From the NCBI GenBank assembly GCA_031761405.1, contig JASEVX010000001.1, positions 107,955,536-108,019,535 on the forward strand: DNA of 64,000 bases, given 5' to 3'. The notes beneath the pieces are model-generated. The model was not told the origin of the DNA. It saw only the letters and a program-made list of their open reading frames with translations, and did not search any database. This stretch comes from Serripes groenlandicus (lineage: Eukaryota > Mollusca > Bivalvia > Cardiida > Cardiidae). How positions within the stretch are numbered: position 1 is the first letter of the stretch; each line of letters starts with the position of its first letter. The translations under genes and the position numbers were made by a program. Shown in pieces: positions 3,701 to 64,000 of the stretch.

Positions 3701-4871
3701 ATGCCCCCGGAATCACCGATTCGGTGGGCATCTAGTTTTTTGGCCTGTCTGCACGTCTGTCTGCACGTCTGTCCGCACGTCTGTCTGTCTGACTGTCTGT
3801 CTGCACGAAAAAAACTTTAACCTTGACCACTACTTTTGAACCATAACAGGTACGGCTACCATATTTCACATGTGTATTTCTTGTGACATGACCTTTCTGT
3901 CAGTACCAACATTTTTGACCTTGCGACCTTGACCTTTGACCTAGATGTTGCCATTCTCGAAAAAAACTTTAACCTTGGCCATTACTTTTGAACCATGACA
4001 GGTAAGGCTACCATGATTCACATGAGTATTCCTTGTGACATGACCTTTCTGTCAGTACCAACATTTTTGACCCTGCGACCTTGACCTTTGATCTTGTTGT
4101 TGCGATTCTCGAAAAAAACTTTAACCTTGGCCATTACTTTTGAACCATAACAGGAACGGCTACCATATTTCACATGTGTATTCCTTGTGACATGACCTTT
4201 CTGTCAGTACCAACATTTTTGACCTTGCGACCTTGACCTTTGACATAGATGTTGCCATTCTAAAAAAAAAACTTTAACCTTCACTACTACTTTTGAACCA
4301 TAACAGGTAAGGCTACCATATTTCACATGTGTATACCTTGTGACATGACCTTTCTGTCAGTACCAAATTTTTTCACCTTGACCTTTGATCTAGATGTTGC
4401 CATTCTCGATAAAAACTTTAACCTTGACCACTACTTTTGAACCATAACAGGTACGGCTACCATATTTCACATGTGTATACCTTGTGACATGACCTTTCTG
4501 TCAGTACCAACATTTTTTACCTTGCGACCTTGACCTTTGACCTAGATGTTGCCATTCTCGAAAAAATACTTTAACCTTGACCACTACTTTTGAACCATAA
4601 CAAGTACGGCTACCATATTTCACATGTGTATACCTTGTGGCATGACCTTTCTGTCAGTACCAAAATTGTTCAACTTGCGACCTTGACTTTTGACCTAGAT
4701 ATTGCCATTCTCGAAAAAAAAAATTAACCTTGACCACTTCTTTTGAACCATAACAGGTACGGCTACCATATTTCACATGTGTATTCCTTGTTACATGACC
4801 TTTCTGTCAGTACCAACATTTTTCACCTGGCGACCTTGACCTTTGACCTAGATGTTACTATTCGGGGGCAT
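3701..4871. mobile_element. Short-TIR element with ~150 bp tandem core (pearl/Helitron-like), about 7 copies
   Basis: The ends are inverted: 'atgcccccg(g)aat' at 3701 and 'attcgggggcat' ending at 4871. Just inside the left end is a 13-nt hairpin 'caccga-t-tcggtg', then a 'gtctgtctgcac' microsatellite. The body is about seven units of ~150 bp with 'ttttgaaccataacagg', 'tttcacatgtgtat', 'cttgtgacatgacctttctg' and 'accttgacctttgacct'. This layout (short inverted ends, tandem core, microsatellite, terminal hairpin) matches the bivalve pearl/Helitron-like non-autonomous elements. That class assignment is from memory. Confidence 0.75.
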
Positions 4872-34251: not shown

Positions 34252-34541
34252 TGACAGTATAGTGTGACATATTCAGATCTACCGACAGTATAGTGTGACA
34301 TATTCAGATATACCGACAGTATATTATGACATATTTAGATATACTGACAGTATATTGTGACATATTCAGATATACCGACAATATAGTGTGACATATTCAG
34401 ATATATTGACAGTATAGTGTGACATATTCAGATATACTGACAGTATAGTGTGACATATTCAGATATACCGACAGTATAGTGTGACATATTCAGATATACT
34501 GACAGGAGTATAGTGTGATATATTCAGATCTACCAATTTTC
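34252..34541. repeat. 31-bp minisatellite, about nine copies
   Basis: Unit 'agtatagtgtgacatattca' followed by 'gatataccgac', with occasional variants (gatctaccga, attgtgacat). Noncoding. Confidence 0.9.
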
Positions 34542-46982: not shown

Positions 46983-47010
46983 TTAGGGTTAGGGTTAGGG
47001 TTAGGGTTAA
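46983..47010. repeat. Interstitial telomeric repeat (TTAGGG)4
   Basis: Four uninterrupted TTAGGG units followed immediately by the TTAA of the next MITE. Confidence 0.95.
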
Positions 47011-56413: not shown

Positions 56414-56600
56414 CTAAACCCTTTTGAATTTTCAGACATCTTGAAGCATCGATCTGCAAGGGATGCAGTGTAGCAGACACATCAGATTCTGTAAGTTTTC
56501 TGACAGCTTTATGGAGTTTCTACCATGTATCCATTAAACTTTATTCAGTTATTATAGACTTCATATTTTGCATTGATGTTTTGAAAGGCGTCAGTAGTAT
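56414..56600 (+). mobile_element. TTAA-hairpin MITE, very old
   Basis: 'taaacccttttgaattttca' and 'gatgttttgaaaggcgtcag'; middle barely recognisable. It is the last copy before the palindrome. Confidence 0.4.
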
Positions 56601-56624
56601 GTATGGCTCTTAGGCCCCAAACAA

Positions 56625-56772
56625 AGATGACGTAATCGGCGGCCATTTTGTTGACCTAGTTACTATTTATAGTATCTCATTTGCATATAAGGATTGACAC
56701 GAGTGAGGACGCTATTGTGTTGACCTAGTTATTTATATACAATGACTGCGCATGCGTTGCGGCCATTTTGAA
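56625..56772. promoter_or_regulatory. Promoter-like motif cluster next to the palindrome
   Basis: CRE-like TGACGTAA (56628-56635), YY1-like CGGCGGCCATTTTG (56637-56650) and GCGGCCATTTTG (56759-56770), octamer ATTTGCAT (56679-56686) and NRF1-like TGCGCATGCG (56747-56756) within 145 bp. Motif names are from general knowledge; function is inferred only. Confidence 0.4.
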
Positions 56773-57206
56773 TGATAGGTCTATATTTAGAATGACATCA
56801 TGGGTCTATATTTAGAAAGCTTTAACAATGGAGCAAGTGTTTCAGTAGCACCCTTCGGGCGAGACCACCAACGATTTGTCTCTAGCCTTCTACCAATATA
56901 TTCTAGCGGGTATGTTGTTGGAACCCTCGAAAATAATGGCGGGGAAATTCGACCTAACCTTTGCTACATTGTTTCGGGAAACCTGACACGAGACATCCAT
57001 ACAACACGATATATCCCTTTAATATGTCGTATAGTCGAGCCGAAGCACGCAGTCAAACATGTATGGTAAAGCAATAAATGTAACGTCTTACCTCGAGAAC
57101 GTCCAGAGTTCAAATGACAGATGCGTAAGTCCTGACACCACGATCTATTTTTAGACACGTTATTTCACAATCAGAAACACACCAGGTGTCCGAACAATAG
57201 ACCATT

Positions 57207-57508
57207 GAAATGTTAATCTCCTTCAAAGGCGCCATACTGTCTGCGTCTATTTATTTAAGGCCGGAAACATGAACAATGCCCAATTGAAATGTCAAAGTTA
57301 ATCTCCTTTAAAGGCGCCATACTGTCTGCGTCTATTGATTTAAAGCCGGAAACATGAACAATGCCCCATTGACATGTCAATATCAATCTCCTTTAAAGGC
57401 GACACAGTGTCCAGCGTCTATTGATTTAAGGACGGAAACGTGTACAATAGCCCATTGACATGTTGAAAATTAATCCCCTTTAAAGGCGACATACTGTCTG
57501 CGTCTGAA
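57207..57508. repeat. ~86-bp tandem repeat, four copies, left arm
   Basis: Each unit has 'ctcctttaaaggcg(c/a)c(a)', 'ctgtctgcgtctattgattt', 'aggccggaaacatgaacaat' and 'gccc(a/c)attgaa'. Mirrored at 63480-63781. Confidence 0.9.
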
Positions 57509-58116
57509 CACCTGCAACGAACGCGTTAACACTTGTCTGAGAATAAACCTTTACACTGCTGTTCAAAAGATTACCCTACATGATGAAAGTTATTATCATG
57601 TTTTAATTTGCACTTGAAAAGTGTCACTGTAGTTAAACACGACTTTACCAATTTGATCATATTTCAAATATAGAGGGAAAAGGAGCCCATTAAAAGCGTC
57701 AAATCGGTTTTTGTTAATTTGTATCACTATTTACGCTTTAACTTTTTCTCTTTATGCTACCAAATGATAGAAGACCCAAAAAGCTTTCATTTAAACCAAA
57801 GTTTGTCGCTATAATTGTTTACCGTTTTCGAGTTATGTAATATGAGAGACTTTTAAACCCCCAAAATGAACTTGACCCGATCCTCAAGTTTGATATACCG
57901 TTGGAAAGATCTCGTTGCGCCCTTTTCATATATGAAAAAATTATGGTCCTACGAATATTAGTTCTCTAGTTATCGTCGTTTTAAATATGTGTTTGTTTCA
58001 AAGTGCGTCAAAAGTCTTCTCAATGCGTAAATGCCGATATCTCCTTTATTTCTTGTCCGAATGTAGTCGTGTTTGGACTCGTTGAAAAGGGTTTCGTAAA
58101 CTCTATCGATTGAGGA

Positions 58117-58175
58117 GGTCAAACCGGAAGTTTGGTCTGTCTGTAAACCGGAAGTGACGTCATTATATATTACAA
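58117..58175. promoter_or_regulatory. CRE plus two ETS-like motifs, left arm
   Basis: Contains TGACGTCA and two copies of the ETS-type word ACCGGAAGT/ACCGGAAGTT. It overlaps a 70-codon open frame that I consider noncoding. Mirror copy at 62813-62871. Confidence 0.4.
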
Positions 58176-58550
58176 TGGTCATATCTTCCTTAGTTCTGAA
58201 CCGATATTTACAATTTGTATATCATTCGAAAGCTCTCATCGAGATAGGAGTATATTCGAATTTGAAAGATATCCGATCAATGTTTTCATGACATTGTACT
58301 TTAAATAAGCAGCGCAAGGGGTAAATGAAAAACAAAGACATGAATACAATTTCTACAATTTTATTATATAATCAAGTATTGTAGTTCGCATAATCAAAAT
58401 AACTAACACTATTTATTGAACACAGCATTCACAAATCACGATTCATTAAGGGATAAAAATGATTATCAATTCGTCTCATACTCCATCCATGACGTCTATG
58501 AATAACTGTCAACCGTTCCGTTATGTTGTAAACGTGGTTAATTTAGGGCC

Positions 58551-58567
58551 CCCCCCCCCCCCCCCCC
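58551..58567. repeat. C homopolymer, 19 nt including 58549-58550, left arm
   Basis: Lies just beyond the stop of the small ORF. The right-arm partner has 18 G (62422-62439), the only point difference I could find between arms outside the minisatellite. Confidence 0.85.
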
Positions 58568-58587
58568 GGCACTTTCTTTCCGATAAT

Positions 58588-58848
58588 TTAGTCTTGTAGT
58601 CCCGGTGGTCCGTGTATTCGATACCCCTTTTTCGCATTGTCAATCATGGTATGTTGTCTTTTCCTGGATACATCTGATTTGGCTAGTTCAACAGCTTGAG
58701 CCACGGGTGTCACAAAGTTAATGGTGGGTTCTTTCATCGTCCCACCCATCTGAATTTTGTCCACGACGTATTGTCCTTTATGATTAGGTTTCAACTTCCC
58801 TTCGGCCATCCGTTGAAAATGTCGTGTCCACATTTCTACTCTATCCAT
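58588..58848 (-). CDS. Small basic 86-aa protein, left arm
   Basis: Starts at ATG with a purine at -3 and G at +4, 70 nt beyond the ATPase stop and on the same strand. Residues 1-20 (MDRVEMWTRHFQRMAEGKLK) are rich in basic and aromatic residues. Near the middle is a 'TPVAQAVELAKS' helix-like segment, then a basic run (SRKRQH) and a Gly/Pro tail. I recall similar short proteins (W..HF..MAEGK; TP.AQAVE.AKS) beside packaging ATPases in invertebrate virus-like elements, but cannot assign a role; a minor virion or DNA-binding protein is one possibility. Identical to the right-arm copy. Confidence 0.55.
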   Translation of the reverse strand: MDRVEMWTRHFQRMAEGKLKPNHKGQYVVDKIQMGGTMKEPTINFVTPVAQAVELAKSDVSRKRQHTMIDNAKKGYRIHGPPGLQD

Positions 58849-58918
58849 CGTTGACGTAAGTGAAGTACACAGCGAGTGATAGTTTTATCTTTGGCTATTA
58901 GCTGTAACTTTCCTCCCC

Positions 58919-60532
58919 TTATAGCATGTCTTCACCATCACTGTCGTCGCTACCACCATAGCTAACGTCGTCGTTCTCAGACTTCACTATACCTTCTATT
59001 AAATAACGGTGTTTCTTAATGGCCGACTGTATGGCCTGTTCTAGTATCATTCCCTCGGACACGAGTTCGTGTACATCTTCCATGACACGTTGGTGAATGA
59101 CTCCGTGTTCTAATTGGAATGTGTGGAGAAGCAGTTGGCTATACATACGTAAGACATGTGTTGTATCTTCCGCTACTATTTTTGAGTCTGCCTTTTTCTT
59201 GGCCTCGTCATTGGACATTCCATCTCGCTCATACTTTTCCACTTTTTTTCGCCAAGATTTTTCATTATTGTTCGAAGCTTTACGGTACATGACTCCAAAC
59301 ACTTTGTGTTCTTCGCTGTCTTTATCTTTTACATCTTCTTCGCTCTGGTCATAGGATATCCACCGTTTTAATGGAGGCGTTTCCGAGTGATCCTCCGTGG
59401 CAGAACGCTTATTACACCATCGTTTGACATGATTTTGTAAAGAATGAACGTCACCAAACACGATACCACAATCGTCGCAAACGGGCATGTCTAGACTGTT
59501 ATCAGACTCGAGGCTGGAATCACTCTTTATGTACTCCACAGGGGTGTCCCTTATAGTTTTCTTAACTGAATATCCTCGCTGATCATATGCTGGAGTATCA
59601 CTTATATACTTGTGTTCAGCTACTGATACATTCTGTTCAAAAATGTTTGGTCTAAGTCGCATGTATTCGGGTGTAGAGGCTTGAAGATCAATAACGAGAT
59701 GTCCATATGGCTTTTCTGTGGCGTTTCGATATACATTCATGAAACTGTGACTACTGGTAGGGTAAATCCGTCGTGCCAGTACAGAAATTTGATGTCTATC
59801 AACTGGGTTGTTAAACACAATTAAATATTTTGTATTAAGGCTGATATCTCGGCACGCTTTTCCTTGAGGAAAAACGTTCTGTGTCAGGAAAATGACCGTC
59901 AAGTTTCTATGATGAGATCCTTTAGTAAAAAGATTAGCCACTCTTTCATCCTTCTTCGCCTCTCCCATCAAATCATCTAATATGATGCAGTTCCGCACGT
60001 TTACGTCTAGATACATATCTTGTTCAAGACAGTCTGGAATCCCCCTCACAAATTCAACGTTAGACAATTCTGTCTTGATTTCGTCGTATAATGGTTGATT
60101 TTGACTATAACACCAGATGATCCTCTGAGGTGGTGGTTGGATTGTATCTTGGCACAATATCATCTTAGTCAATACCGATTTACCACTTCCACTCGGCCCA
60201 GACAAAACGAGTGTACACGGATGTTTAAACTTAAATACAGGCGCTCCGGGCGCTCCCAAATGCGCTTCGGGCGCTCCAAAATGCGCTCCGGGAGCTCCCA
60301 AATGCGCTCCGGGAGCTCCCAAATGCGCTCCGGGAGCTCCCAAATGCGCTCCGGGCGCTCCCAAATGCGCTCCGGGCGCTCCCAAATGCGCTCCGGGCGC
60401 TCCCAAATGCGCTCCGGGAGCTCCCAAATGCGCTCCGGGAGCTCCCAAATGCGCTCCGGGCGCTCCCAAATGCGCTCCGGGCGCTCCCAAATGCGCTCCG
60501 GGAGCTCCCAAATGCGCTCCGGGCGCTCCCTC
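58919..60532 (-). CDS. Viral-type DNA-packaging ATPase fused to zinc finger, left arm (no upstream ATG)
   Basis: Same protein as the right-arm gene from the FKFKHP segment to the stop: P-loop GPSGSGKS, Walker B CIILDD, sensor-like FLTQN, C2HC finger and acidic end. The N-terminal array is about 12 GAPGAHL units against about 6 on the right, with one GAPEAHL and one GAHF variant. The frame stays open upstream into the central spacer, but I see no in-frame ATG before the Walker A motif. Translation would need a non-ATG start, splicing or an upstream exon; otherwise this copy may be silent. An ATG in another frame (about 60531) leads into ERPERIW repeats instead. Confidence 0.7.
   Translation of the reverse strand, partial: EGAPGAHLGAPGAHLGAPGAHLGAPGAHLGAPGAHLGAPGAHLGAPGAHLGAPGAHLGAPGAHLGAPGAHLGAPGAHLGAPGAHFGAPEAHLGAPGAPVFKFKHPCTLVLSGPSGSGKSVLTKMILCQDTIQPPPQRIIWCYSQNQPLYDEIKTELSNVEFVRGIPDCLEQDMYLDVNVRNCIILDDLMGEAKKDERVANLFTKGSHHRNLTVIFLTQNVFPQGKACRDISLNTKYLIVFNNPVDRHQISVLARRIYPTSSHSFMNVYRNATEKPYGHLVIDLQASTPEYMRLRPNIFEQNVSVAEHKYISDTPAYDQRGYSVKKTIRDTPVEYIKSDSSLESDNSLDMPVCDDCGIVFGDVHSLQNHVKRWCNKRSATEDHSETPPLKRWISYDQSEEDVKDKDSEEHKVFGVMYRKASNNNEKSWRKKVEKYERDGMSNDEAKKKADSKIVAEDTTHVLRMYSQLLLHTFQLEHGVIHQRVMEDVHELVSEGMILEQAIQSAIKKHRYLIEGIVKSENDDVSYGGSDDSDGEDML
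60241..60532. repeat. 21-bp coding minisatellite, left arm, about 13 units
   Basis: Units alternate between a GGAGCGCCC and a GGAGCTCCC version followed by GGAGCGCATTTG. Read in frame with the ATPase they give GAPGAHL; other frames, also open, give ERPERIW or RSGRSQM-like repeats. High GC contrasts sharply with the surrounding AT-rich DNA. Confidence 0.92.
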
Positions 60533-60616
60533 ATATTGTTGTACTCCTGGTGATATATTCCAGTATCTTTGGTCTGTATGTGAAGATGGTTCTTCAAAGT
60601 GTTTGTTTCTCTCATT
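60533..60616. other. Non-symmetric centre of the palindrome
   Basis: About 84 bp between the two minisatellite arrays with no inverted partner in either arm. It contains the in-frame ATG for the right-hand gene (60586-60588, context aagATGg). It does not look like a sequencing adapter to me. Confidence 0.8.
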
Positions 60617-62070
60617 TGGGAGCGCCCGGAGCGCATGGAGCGCATTTGGGAGCGCCCGGAGCGCATTTGGGAGCGCCCGGAGCGCATTTGGGAGCGCCCG
60701 GAGCGCATTTGGGAGCTCCCGGAGCGCATTTTGGAGCGCCCGGAGCGCCTGTATTTAAGTTTAAACATCCGTGTACACTCGTTTTGTCTGGGCCGAGTGG
60801 AAGTGGTAAATCGGTATTGACTAAGATGATATTGTGCCAAGATACAATCCAACCACCACCTCAGAGGATCATCTGGTGTTATAGTCAAAATCAACCATTA
60901 TACGACGAAATCAAGACAGAATTGTCTAACGTTGAATTTGTGAGGGGGATTCCAGACTGTCTTGAACAAGATATGTATCTAGACGTAAACGTGCGGAACT
61001 GCATCATATTAGATGATTTGATGGGAGAGGCGAAGAAGGATGAAAGAGTGGCTAATCTTTTTACTAAAGGATCTCATCATAGAAACTTGACGGTCATTTT
61101 CCTGACACAGAACGTTTTTCCTCAAGGAAAAGCGTGCCGAGATATCAGCCTTAATACAAAATATTTAATTGTGTTTAACAACCCAGTTGATAGACATCAA
61201 ATTTCTGTACTGGCACGACGGATTTACCCTACCAGTAGTCACAGTTTCATGAATGTATATCGAAACGCCACAGAAAAGCCATATGGACATCTCGTTATTG
61301 ATCTTCAAGCCTCTACACCCGAATACATGCGACTTAGACCAAACATTTTTGAACAGAATGTATCAGTAGCTGAACACAAGTATATAAGTGATACTCCAGC
61401 ATATGATCAGCGAGGATATTCAGTTAAGAAAACTATAAGGGACACCCCTGTGGAGTACATAAAGAGTGATTCCAGCCTCGAGTCTGATAACAGTCTAGAC
61501 ATGCCCGTTTGCGACGATTGTGGTATCGTGTTTGGTGACGTTCATTCTTTACAAAATCATGTCAAACGATGGTGTAATAAGCGTTCTGCCACGGAGGATC
61601 ACTCGGAAACGCCTCCATTAAAACGGTGGATATCCTATGACCAGAGCGAAGAAGATGTAAAAGATAAAGACAGCGAAGAACACAAAGTGTTTGGAGTCAT
61701 GTACCGTAAAGCTTCGAACAATAATGAAAAATCTTGGCGAAAAAAAGTGGAAAAGTATGAGCGAGATGGAATGTCCAATGACGAGGCCAAGAAAAAGGCA
61801 GACTCAAAAATAGTAGCGGAAGATACAACACATGTCTTACGTATGTATAGCCAACTGCTTCTCCACACATTCCAATTAGAACACGGAGTCATTCACCAAC
61901 GTGTCATGGAAGATGTACACGAACTCGTGTCCGAGGGAATGATACTAGAACAGGCCATACAGTCGGCCATTAAGAAACACCGTTATTTAATAGAAGGTAT
62001 AGTGAAGTCTGAGAACGACGACGTTAGCTATGGTGGTAGCGACGACAGTGATGGTGAAGACATGCTATAA
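60586..62070 (+). CDS. Viral-type DNA-packaging ATPase with GAPGAHL N-terminus and C2HC zinc finger, right arm
   Basis: 494 aa from the ATG at 60586 (A at -3, G at +4). Residues about 11-55 are GAPGAHL repeats. The ATPase core follows: Walker A GPSGSGKS at about 69-76, an aromatic WCYSQNQPLYDEI segment at about 97-109, Walker B CIILDD at about 139-144 and sensor-like VIFLTQN at about 170-176. This order fits A32-like packaging ATPases of the HerA/FtsK group carried by Polintons, adintoviruses and related viruses. A C-x2-C-x12-H-x4-C finger (C309, C312, H325, C330) follows, then a charged helical region and an acidic end (DDSDGEDML). Expected role: ATP-driven DNA movement into a capsid. The finger and C-terminal part are not in the usual ATPase core and may be a fusion. 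The 86-aa ORF follows after 70 nt. Confidence 0.8.
   Translation: MVLQSVCFSHLGAPGAHGAHLGAPGAHLGAPGAHLGAPGAHLGAPGAHFGAPGAPVFKFKHPCTLVLSGPSGSGKSVLTKMILCQDTIQPPPQRIIWCYSQNQPLYDEIKTELSNVEFVRGIPDCLEQDMYLDVNVRNCIILDDLMGEAKKDERVANLFTKGSHHRNLTVIFLTQNVFPQGKACRDISLNTKYLIVFNNPVDRHQISVLARRIYPTSSHSFMNVYRNATEKPYGHLVIDLQASTPEYMRLRPNIFEQNVSVAEHKYISDTPAYDQRGYSVKKTIRDTPVEYIKSDSSLESDNSLDMPVCDDCGIVFGDVHSLQNHVKRWCNKRSATEDHSETPPLKRWISYDQSEEDVKDKDSEEHKVFGVMYRKASNNNEKSWRKKVEKYERDGMSNDEAKKKADSKIVAEDTTHVLRMYSQLLLHTFQLEHGVIHQRVMEDVHELVSEGMILEQAIQSAIKKHRYLIEGIVKSENDDVSYGGSDDSDGEDML
60617..60750. repeat. 21-bp coding minisatellite, right arm, about 6 units
   Basis: Same unit as the left array but half the length. One unit is cut to GAH by a 12-bp loss (about 60630-60640). 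The last unit is GAHF then GAPGAP, as in the left arm. Confidence 0.92.
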
Positions 62071-62140
62071 GGGGAGGAAAGTTACAGCTAATAGCCAAAG
62101 ATAAAACTATCACTCGCTGTGTACTTCACTTACGTCAACG

Positions 62141-62401
62141 ATGGATAGAGTAGAAATGTGGACACGACATTTTCAACGGATGGCCGAAGGGAAGTTGAAA
62201 CCTAATCATAAAGGACAATACGTCGTGGACAAAATTCAGATGGGTGGGACGATGAAAGAACCCACCATTAACTTTGTGACACCCGTGGCTCAAGCTGTTG
62301 AACTAGCCAAATCAGATGTATCCAGGAAAAGACAACATACCATGATTGACAATGCGAAAAAGGGGTATCGAATACACGGACCACCGGGACTACAAGACTA
62401 A
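62141..62401 (+). CDS. Small basic 86-aa protein, right arm
   Basis: Identical in sequence to the left-arm copy and in the same position relative to the ATPase. The intergenic 70 nt hold no obvious TATA box, so the pair may be co-transcribed or the small gene may have its own initiator. An AATAAA appears at about 62571 and ATAATAAAAT at about 62621, possible polyadenylation signals for the pair. Confidence 0.55.
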   Translation: MDRVEMWTRHFQRMAEGKLKPNHKGQYVVDKIQMGGTMKEPTINFVTPVAQAVELAKSDVSRKRQHTMIDNAKKGYRIHGPPGLQD

Positions 62402-62421
62402 ATTATCGGAAAGAAAGTGCC

Positions 62422-62439
62422 GGGGGGGGGGGGGGGGGG
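62422..62439. repeat. G homopolymer, 18 nt, right arm
   Basis: Mirror of the 19-nt C run in the left arm. A G-rich transcript or strand could form a quadruplex. Confidence 0.85.
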
Positions 62440-62812
62440 CCCTAAATTAACCACGTTTACAACATAACGGAACGGTTGACAGTTATTCATAGACGTCATG
62501 GATGGAGTATGAGACGAATTGATAATCATTTTTATCCCTTAATGAATCGTGATTTGTGAATGCTGTGTTCAATAAATAGTGTTAGTTATTTTGATTATGC
62601 GAACTACAATACTTGATTATATAATAAAATTGTAGAAATTGTATTCATGTCTTTGTTTTTCATTTACCCCTTGCGCTGCTTATTTAAAGTACAATGTCAT
62701 GAAAACATTGATCGGATATCTTTCAAATTCGAATATACTCCTATCTCGATGAGAGCTTTCGAATGATATACAAATTGTAAATATCGGTTCAGAACTAAGG
62801 AAGATATGACCA

Positions 62813-62871
62813 TTGTAATATATAATGACGTCACTTCCGGTTTACAGACAGACCAAACTTCCGGTTTGACC
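62813..62871. promoter_or_regulatory. CRE plus two ETS-like motifs, right arm
   Basis: TGACGTCACTTCCGG followed about 25 bp later by ACTTCCGG. Conserved in the left arm. Could drive transcription inward or outward; no start site can be placed from sequence. Confidence 0.4.
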
Positions 62872-63479
62872 TCCTCAATCGATAGAGTTTACGAAACCCT
62901 TTTCAACGAGTCCAAACACGACTACATTCGGACAAGAAATAAAGGAGATATCGGCATTTACGCATTGAGAAGACTTTTGACGCACTTTGAAACAAACACA
63001 TATTTAAAACGACGATAACTAGAGAACTAATATTCGTAGGACCATAATTTTTTCATATATGAAAAGGGCGCAACGAGATCTTTCCAACGGTATATCAAAC
63101 TTGAGGATCGGGTCAAGTTCATTTTGGGGGTTTAAAAGTCTCTCATATTACATAACTCGAAAACGGTAAACAATTATAGCGACAAACTTTGGTTTAAATG
63201 AAAGCTTTTTGGGTCTTCTATCATTTGGTAGCATAAAGAGAAAAAGTTAAAGCGTAAATAGTGATACAAATTAACAAAAACCGATTTGACGCTTTTAATG
63301 GGCTCCTTTTCCCTCTATATTTGAAATATGATCAAATTGGTAAAGTCGTGTTTAACTACAGTGACACTTTTCAAGTGCAAATTAAAACATGATAATAACT
63401 TTCATCATGTAGGGTAATCTTTTGAACAGCAGTGTAAAGGTTTATTCTCAGACAAGTGTTAACGCGTTCGTTGCAGGTG

Positions 63480-63781
63480 TTCAGACGCAGACAGTATGTC
63501 GCCTTTAAAGGGGATTAATTTTCAACATGTCAATGGGCTATTGTACACGTTTCCGTCCTTAAATCAATAGACGCTGGACACTGTGTCGCCTTTAAAGGAG
63601 ATTGATATTGACATGTCAATGGGGCATTGTTCATGTTTCCGGCTTTAAATCAATAGACGCAGACAGTATGGCGCCTTTAAAGGAGATTAACTTTGACATT
63701 TCAATTGGGCATTGTTCATGTTTCCGGCCTTAAATAAATAGACGCAGACAGTATGGCGCCTTTGAAGGAGATTAACATTTC
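63480..63781. repeat. ~86-bp tandem repeat, four copies, right arm
   Basis: Reverse complement of 57207-57508, with the same unit order and the same variants. Confidence 0.9.
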
Positions 63782-64000
63782 AATGGTCTATTGTTCGGAC
63801 ACCTGGTGTGTTTCTGATTGTGAAATAACGTGTCTAAAAATAGATCGTGGTGTCAGGACTTACGCATCTGTCATTTGAACTCTGGACGTTCTCGAGGTAA
63901 GACGTTACATTTATTGCTTTACCATACATGTTTGACTGCGTGCTTCGGCTCGACTATACGACATATTAAAGGGATATATCGTGTTGTATGGATGTCTCGT

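What the first reader, a model, noticed from the sequence alone, without database searches (positions are those of the whole stretch)
56988..64000. Head-to-head palindrome of a virus-type packaging ATPase locus
Two arms of at least 3.5 kb are almost identical reverse complements and each carries ATPase, small ORF, homopolymer, CRE/ETS patch and 86-bp repeats in the same order, transcribed outward. Polinton-type elements normally have short terminal inverted repeats and a single gene set; a genome or element folded head-to-head around a minisatellite is unusual. It could be a concatemer junction of a linear virus with a covalently closed end, a recent inverted duplication after integration, or an assembly fold-back. 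The lack of older repeats inside suggests it is young.
Basis: partly seen in the sequence, partly recalled or inferred. Interest (0 to 1): 0.88.

Follow-up and report, generated by a model that had tools for sequence, protein, structure and literature searches.

The report
Palindromic satellite of a Polinton virus-transposon
The near-perfect palindrome is not an assembly error but a young, many-copy mobile element that has the ends of a larger virus-like transposon at both tips and carries two head-to-head copies of a DNA-packaging motor gene, so it looks like a heritable parasite of that virus-like element.

Summary
The palindrome is real and not an assembly fold-back. It is one copy of a dispersed mobile-element family in this 1.76-Gb genome. 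The unit (w56593-64395; the window cuts off its last 395 bp) is flanked by a 6-bp target duplication, GGCGTC. Of 101 scored ATPase matches, 84 form 42 head-to-head pairs. Sixteen of 16 palindromes with readable ends have perfect 6-bp duplications.

The window copy's arms end in up to 1.5 kb that is ~96-97% identical to the PolB-side end of 15-17-kb Polintons, beyond the repeat that the Polintons' two ends share. The palindrome encodes neither polymerase nor integrase. It carries, twice, a packaging ATPase unlike the Polinton's own and a small protein whose first 59 residues equal the Polinton's in a sister copy but whose tail is replaced.

The two arms evolve together (30 private variants on both arms, 5 on one), whereas an asymmetric 87-105-bp centre is inherited, so the palindrome is passed on as such. 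I read it as a snap-back-born satellite that uses Polinton replication and integration, and possibly its capsids. The window copy has lost both ATPase starts. Capsid hijacking and hairpin replication are inferred, not shown.

The parts
56587..56592 (.). left copy of the 6-bp target-site duplication GGCGTC (right copy lies outside the window, at w64396-64401)
   Evidence: sequence
56593..58131 (.). outer part of left arm: AGTAGTAT terminus, TIR and PolB-side subterminal DNA; 96.4% identical to the PolB-side end of Polinton C847 over 1,540 bp (the Polinton's other end matches only 762 bp)
57209..57505 (.). ~85-bp tandem repeats (3.4 copies), left arm, inside the Polinton-derived end
58588..58848 (-). 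86-aa ORF, left arm; homologue of the Polinton gene just upstream of the capsid-like frame; window copy differs from it at 2 of the first 59 residues, tail replaced
58919..60240 (-). packaging ATPase, left arm (P-loop domain, C2H2 finger, helical C-terminal part); reads on in frame through the 21-bp array
60241..60530 (.). 21-bp array (13.8 copies), in-frame (GAPGAHL)n segment of the left ATPase
60531..60612 (.). unique spacer: remnant of the left ATPase N-terminal coding segment. Against 14 full-centre copies a central deletion has removed the first ~22 codons of the left and ~50 codons of the right ATPase, and the centre between them with its TATA boxes
   Evidence: centre strings, N-terminal sequence, TATA positions in L018; codon numbers counted by eye
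60613..60748 (.). 21-bp array (5.8 copies), in-frame segment of the right ATPase
60749..62070 (+). packaging ATPase, right arm (no native start in this copy)
62141..62401 (+). 86-aa ORF, right arm
62857..64000 (.). outer part of right arm, Polinton PolB-side end in inverse orientation; continues to w64395 beyond the window
63483..63775 (.). ~85-bp tandem repeats (3.4 copies), right arm

Best explanation
The locus is one inserted copy of a 7.8-9.8-kb, almost fully palindromic, non-autonomous satellite of a Polinton (Maverick). Shown: it is a mobile unit (6-bp target duplications around the whole palindrome, dispersed in many copies); both its ends are related to the PolB-side end of long Polintons in the same genome; no polymerase or integrase frame is seen in it; it carries two copies of a packaging ATPase of a lineage other than the Polinton's own, and of a small gene whose N-terminal part matches the Polinton gene next to the capsid-like frame; its two arms are homogenised while the loop is not. 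Inferred: a fold-back (snap-back) event during protein-primed strand-displacement replication of a Polinton PolB end made the first palindrome. A displaced strand of such an element is self-complementary and can fold into a closed-end hairpin, so the arms are corrected against each other and the unpaired loop is not. The Polinton's polymerase and integrase act on the shared ends in trans. The satellite's ATPase and small protein, with a TATAAGGGG leader like that of some Polinton genes, serve to get satellite DNA packaged in the Polinton's capsid, perhaps at its cost.
Against: No expression, extrachromosomal DNA, virion or mobilisation data. The origin of the ATPase is not found: with P0003 as query all 86 scored matches (of 3,312 candidates) were at 47-48% identity and looked like satellite copies, and the two other Polinton lineages read here have a different ATPase. 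The larger satellite subfamily (L014, L016, L018, L022, L028 compared) is less close to the long Polintons than the window copy: ~92-93% over the first ~505-575 bp and ~84-89% over the ~610-bp PolB-side block, with other DNA between, so its own closest helper may not have been seen. One long element, C1060, has no target duplication and only part of the integrase. Arm homogenisation could be chromosomal gene conversion after insertion. Selection on the small gene alone is not significant (p 0.19), and L027 has a stop in it on both arms. Purifying selection on the ATPase rests on 22 changes. The small gene's tail is unexplained and its structure model is poor.
Confidence: 0.75

Rival explanations
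1. Assembly fold-back or chimeric palindromic read.
For: Near-perfect inverted repeats are a known artefact class (general knowledge); three of 19 fetched palindromic loci (L013, L015, L020) contain 200 N, and in two of them the right end could not be read.
Against: Same palindrome at dozens of loci, perfect 6-bp duplications in 16 of 16 readable copies with different flanks, inherited asymmetric centres in both orientations.
Confidence: 0.02
2. Inert non-autonomous Polinton deletion derivative: the ATPase and small gene are passengers without function and the palindrome is only a neutral amplification product.
For: Copies are young, so open frames could persist by descent; derivatives without the full ATPase exist (L056, L057, L058); five of 19 fetched copies have lost part of the centre.
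Against: 98 of 101 scored ATPase matches have no internal stop and pN/pS is 0.31 (p 0.007); the ATPase comes from another lineage than the helper's, which a simple internal deletion would not give; the replaced small-gene tail recurs with a different matched head in other sources.
Confidence: 0.25
3. Arms are kept identical by chromosomal gene conversion between palindrome arms after insertion, as in large chromosomal palindromes, not by the replication cycle.
For: The same pattern of private variants on both arms is expected; L012 and L016 keep 3 and 2 one-arm differences.
Against: Hypervariable tips are equal at both ends in 15 of 16 palindromes and also in 3 of the 4 long Polintons, the fourth being truncated at one tip, where the ends lie 15-17 kb apart; most copies seem too young for repeated conversion in place (inference).
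Confidence: 0.25
4. Concatemer junction or integrated terminal fragment of a linear virus with covalently closed ends.
For: Head-to-head arms with a short loop resemble such junctions (general knowledge).
Against: The unit ends on both sides in Polinton termini and target duplications; the loop is internal coding and promoter-like DNA of the ATPase, not a genome end.
Confidence: 0.04

Closest known systems
Polinton/Maverick (polintoviruses)
   Same: 6-bp target duplication, AG...CT termini (terminal signature recalled), shared TIR and subterminal DNA, a packaging ATPase of the family common to DJR-capsid viruses; Polinton gene set as in PMC4028283 (outline and Findings section part 1 seen).
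   Different: 7.8-9.8 kb instead of 15-20 kb, palindromic, no PolB, integrase, protease or capsid frame seen, two copies of two genes.
Snap-back defective genomes of adeno-associated virus
   Same: Inverted duplication of one genome end, dependent genome; AAV snap-back subgenomes regulate the parent virus (PMC8235507, outline with abstract only).
   Different: Here inherited as such, integrated in many copies, open genes; protein-primed rather than rolling-hairpin helper (inference).
Symmetric left-end adenovirus defectives and the hairpin derivative of yeast linear plasmid pGKL (both recalled, no call)
   Same: Protein-primed systems that throw off palindromes of one end.
   Different: Those arise repeatedly and transiently; this is a germline family with a foreign ATPase.
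Phage satellites that bring their own packaging factors (PICI, P4; recalled)
   Same: Small dependent element with packaging and capsid-associated genes.
   Different: Hijacking is only inferred here; animal genome, palindromic.
Foldback/TU-type long-inverted-repeat elements (recalled)
   Same: Long inverted repeats, tandem repeats within.
   Different: Ends, target duplication and genes are Polinton-type.

Membership tests
Polinton/Maverick (autonomous) | 6-bp target-site duplication | tested here: met
   16 of 16 readable palindromes, 18 tried; 3 of 4 long Polintons
Polinton/Maverick (autonomous) | terminal inverted repeats of the Polinton | tested here: met
   window copy 96-98% over the shared repeat to ends of 4 of 4 long Polintons; other subfamily ~92-93% over ~505-575 bp
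Polinton/Maverick (autonomous) | FtsK/A32-type packaging ATPase | tested here: met
   Pox_A32 and Adeno_IVa2 hits, both below curated cut-offs; homologues carry those domains; STIV B204 best fold match
Polinton/Maverick (autonomous) | protein-primed PolB | tested here: not met
   no frame of that size in a full copy (L018) or the window copy
Polinton/Maverick (autonomous) | rve integrase | tested here: not met
   no such frame
Polinton/Maverick (autonomous) | capsid proteins and protease | tested here: not met
   no such frame; in C847 a weak Peptidase_C5 hit and a capsid-like frame by resemblance, no Pfam hit
Non-autonomous satellite of a Polinton | shares termini with a helper present in the same genome | tested here: met
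Non-autonomous satellite of a Polinton | mobilised in trans by the helper | not testable with these tools
   no activity data
Snap-back defective genome | palindrome of one parental end | tested here: met
   PolB-side end at both tips
Snap-back defective genome | arises anew each time rather than being inherited | tested here: not met
   shared asymmetric centres, shared arms
Packaging-hijacking satellite (PICI-like) | own packaging factor redirects helper capsids | not testable with these tools
   ATPase of another clade than the helper's; no functional data
MITE | short, non-coding | tested here: not met
   558-aa and 86-aa frames in both arms

The most novel reading that the evidence does not exclude
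A heritable, self-complementary satellite virus of an animal Polinton: the palindrome is its genome format. Each displaced strand folds into a ready-made ~4-5-kb hairpin duplex that is replicated and packaged, and the element brings its own packaging ATPase plus a capsid-docking protein that keeps the helper's head but swaps its basic tail, redirecting helper capsids to satellite DNA, as phage satellites do.
Probability: 0.35. Interest if true: 0.93.

Novelty: new variant of a known kind. Interest (0 to 1): 0.82.

Why it matters
Whether Polintons are viruses or only transposons is still debated (my understanding), and satellites that carry packaging genes make most sense if capsids form. A dispersed satellite whose only recognised genes are a packaging motor and a protein matched to the helper's capsid-side gene turns that into a testable question: is satellite DNA protected in particles? 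It would also be a case of a defective-interfering-type palindrome that became a stable germline lineage, with natural evidence of arm-to-arm copying. Palindromes of this kind may be misread as assembly errors in other long-read genomes.

Tried and rejected
Assembly fold-back, inverted duplication in place, and concatemer junction were rejected (see rivals). The ATPase was searched for relatives in IMG/VR viral contigs: 5 stretches matched a pattern, none encoded a relative. PHROGs gave only weak hits (best E 0.041) and the PDB sequence search gave no match. The 86-aa model is too poor to interpret (mean pLDDT 61.8). The source of the ATPase was looked for with P0003 and by reading upstream of the integrase in two other Polinton lineages (the ATPases there were judged helper-like by eye): not found. 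Whether the 17 single ATPase loci are palindromes: small-gene matches on both strands are visible for 7 of them (C955, C113:63.6M, C446:40.2M, C1125, C1185:43.0M, C1629:40.2M, C668, the last 8.6 kb apart); L004 is undecided; the rest were not read. A 1.6-kb element (L055) with non-matching flanks was left aside. A noncoding control for the selection test was dropped because only 9 of 21 copies gave an equal-length piece (32 variable of 566 sites). Paper searches for Polinton with palindrome, satellite and non-autonomous, mollusc and Maverick, TIR terms, nonautonomous listed nothing whose title or abstract start describes a palindromic Polinton satellite; the library holds only open-licence PMC papers. 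The listings for adenovirus and linear-plasmid palindromes held no fitting paper, so those parallels are recalled. Rows dropped: one search left out L015R and L020L, so 17 of 19 copies were compared arm to arm; could not read the right ends of L015 and L020, and L013 was not tried.
Full report
What is there. With the DNA beyond the window the palindrome runs from w56593 to w64395, 7.8 kb, and is bracketed by GGCGTC on both sides. The host is an unnamed animal genome of 1,758,966,737 bases in 1,739 contigs; I believe a mollusc, which is only an impression.

It is a dispersed family. Searching the own genome with the ATPase core gave 101 scored matches out of 1,576 first-look candidates, so counts are lower bounds. 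They contain 42 head-to-head pairs with 657-1,494 bp between the cores, 17 singles and no other arrangement within 6 kb. For 7 of the 17 singles, small-gene matches on both strands appear. 98 of 101 ATPase matches have no internal stop. I fetched 19 palindromic loci. In 18 the left end was located; in 16 of these the right end could be read, and all 16 have a perfect 6-bp duplication; their lengths, worked out from those coordinates, are 7.8-9.8 kb. The element therefore inserts as a palindrome.

Whose ends are these? A 191-bp probe from the terminal repeat found 40 scored of 974 candidate sites, among them opposed pairs 1.5 to 17 kb apart. I read four of the 15-17-kb pairs at their ends and one (C847) in pieces. 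C847 is a Polinton: PolB (PF03175, E 2.9e-45), its own ATPase, integrase (PF00665, E 5.4e-15), a capsid-like frame by resemblance only (no Pfam hit), a Peptidase_C5-like protease (E 0.0056, below cut-off), and ATTAAT on both sides. Its two ends share 762-772 bp. The window palindrome shares 1,540 bp (96.4%) with the PolB-side end and only 762 bp with the other end. The three other long elements agree: on the PolB side 1,522 bp (C1629), 1,282 bp plus a second block (C113) and two blocks reaching past the shared repeat (C1060); on the other side 734-762 bp. Target duplications match in three of the four; C1060 has none and only part of the integrase. So both tips of the window palindrome are PolB-side ends. 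The larger subfamily (five copies compared) is related to the same ends but less closely, ~92-93% over the first ~505-575 bp and ~84-89% over a ~610-bp PolB-side block. Three of four smaller derivatives (L056, L057, L058) also have two PolB-side ends and 6-bp duplications. About 60 helpers have an intact integrase: 62 matches at 90% identity or more over at least 344 of 347 residues, 60 without stop.

The window copy. Full centres have both ATPase starts (14 of 19 copies), with TATA boxes 49 bp upstream in L018, the copy measured. In the window copy a central deletion has removed the first ~22 codons of the left and ~50 of the right ATPase and the stretch between them (counted by eye). It is probably a broken copy, although its arms are intact.

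How the arms behave. Over a ~2.25-kb inner piece, 17 copies with both arms were compared (36 arms aligned; L015R and L020L dropped). 15 of 17 have no difference between their arms, the others 3 and 2. The nearest other copy differs by 0-7. Thirty variants private to a copy are on both arms, five on one (sign test p 2e-5). The tip sequence (nt 9-31), highly variable between copies, is the same at both ends in 15 of 16 palindromes, and also in three of the four long Polintons, the fourth being truncated at one tip, so end-to-end copying is not peculiar to palindromes. In contrast, the central 87-105 bp are asymmetric in 14 of 14 full-centre copies, and one identical asymmetric centre recurs in four. 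The palindrome is thus inherited, not remade each time, and whatever homogenises the arms spares the loop. This fits correction of a strand folded on itself; chromosomal conversion is not excluded.

Is the cargo used? Among 21 copies (40 arms) the ATPase core shows 10 synonymous and 12 non-synonymous changes on 253 and 992 sites, pN/pS 0.31, p 0.007; the small gene alone 4 and 7, pN/pS 0.47, p 0.19. The L027 small gene has a stop on both arms and L005 has an ATPase stop on one arm. TATAAGGGG stands upstream of the satellite's small gene and of its ATPase (one arm exact, the other TATAAAGGGG in L018), and upstream of the helper's small gene and its 108-aa gene; one more lies inside the helper's 157-aa frame; none in 56.6 kb of window background. 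These are small numbers.

Model. A Polinton PolB end folded back during strand-displacement replication; the product, with two good origins and ends, was replicated and integrated by the helper's enzymes. At some stage it acquired a foreign packaging ATPase and a tail-swapped copy of a capsid-side gene, which are retained by selection because they favour packaging of the satellite. Mobility, related ends, gene content, homogenised arms and the inherited centre are shown; origin, trans-mobilisation, hairpin form and packaging role are inferred.

Literature. Polinton gene content and capsid arguments: PMC4028283 (outline and Findings section part 1). AAV snap-back subgenomes as regulators: PMC8235507 (outline with abstract). 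Large-transposon review PMC6431247 and bivalve transposon survey PMC10294476: passages only. No listed title or abstract start describes a palindromic Polinton satellite. The adenovirus, pGKL and phage-satellite parallels and the Polinton AG...CT signature are recalled.

Noticed in passing
L030 1812-2321(-), 2932-3417(-), 2538-2834(-) (Polinton C847): The helper Polinton encodes a TATA-binding-protein-like protein (PF00352, E 3.5e-24), a PC4 coactivator (PF02229, E 4.6e-21) and a BIR/IAP domain (PF00653, E 1.9e-23): a transposon with transcription-factor-like genes and an apoptosis-inhibitor-like domain.
   Followed up: partly
tips of L009, L011, L012, L014-L028 and of four long Polintons: Nucleotides 9-31 of the termini are a mosaic of a few alternative blocks between copies, yet mostly equal at both ends of a copy; meaning unknown.
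   Followed up: partly
C847, C113, C158, C1303, C1629:1.0M, C2:64.7M (coordinates): The small gene lies about 0.7-1.0 kb downstream of the integrase match in these six Polinton loci: apparently a conserved Polinton gene, with no Pfam family for the C847 copy.
   Followed up: partly
L029 7042-8133: The helper's ATPase has a very long polyproline segment where the satellite's has (GAPGAHL)n: low-complexity linkers between finger and P-loop domain in both.
   Followed up: no
window 58549-58568 and 62422-62441: The C/G homopolymer is ~18-20 nt in the window copy but a short GC run at the same place in L018: it looks like a recent expansion present on both arms.
   Followed up: no
window 34253-34534, 3806-4863, 46983-47009: Other tandem arrays in the window (31-bp x 9, 153-bp x 7, TTAGGG x 4.5), not studied.
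   Followed up: no
L058 (C2:45602530-45607850): 5.1-kb asymmetric derivative: one arm carries the satellite's inner part, the other only the PolB-side end; either a deletion product or an intermediate.
   Followed up: partly
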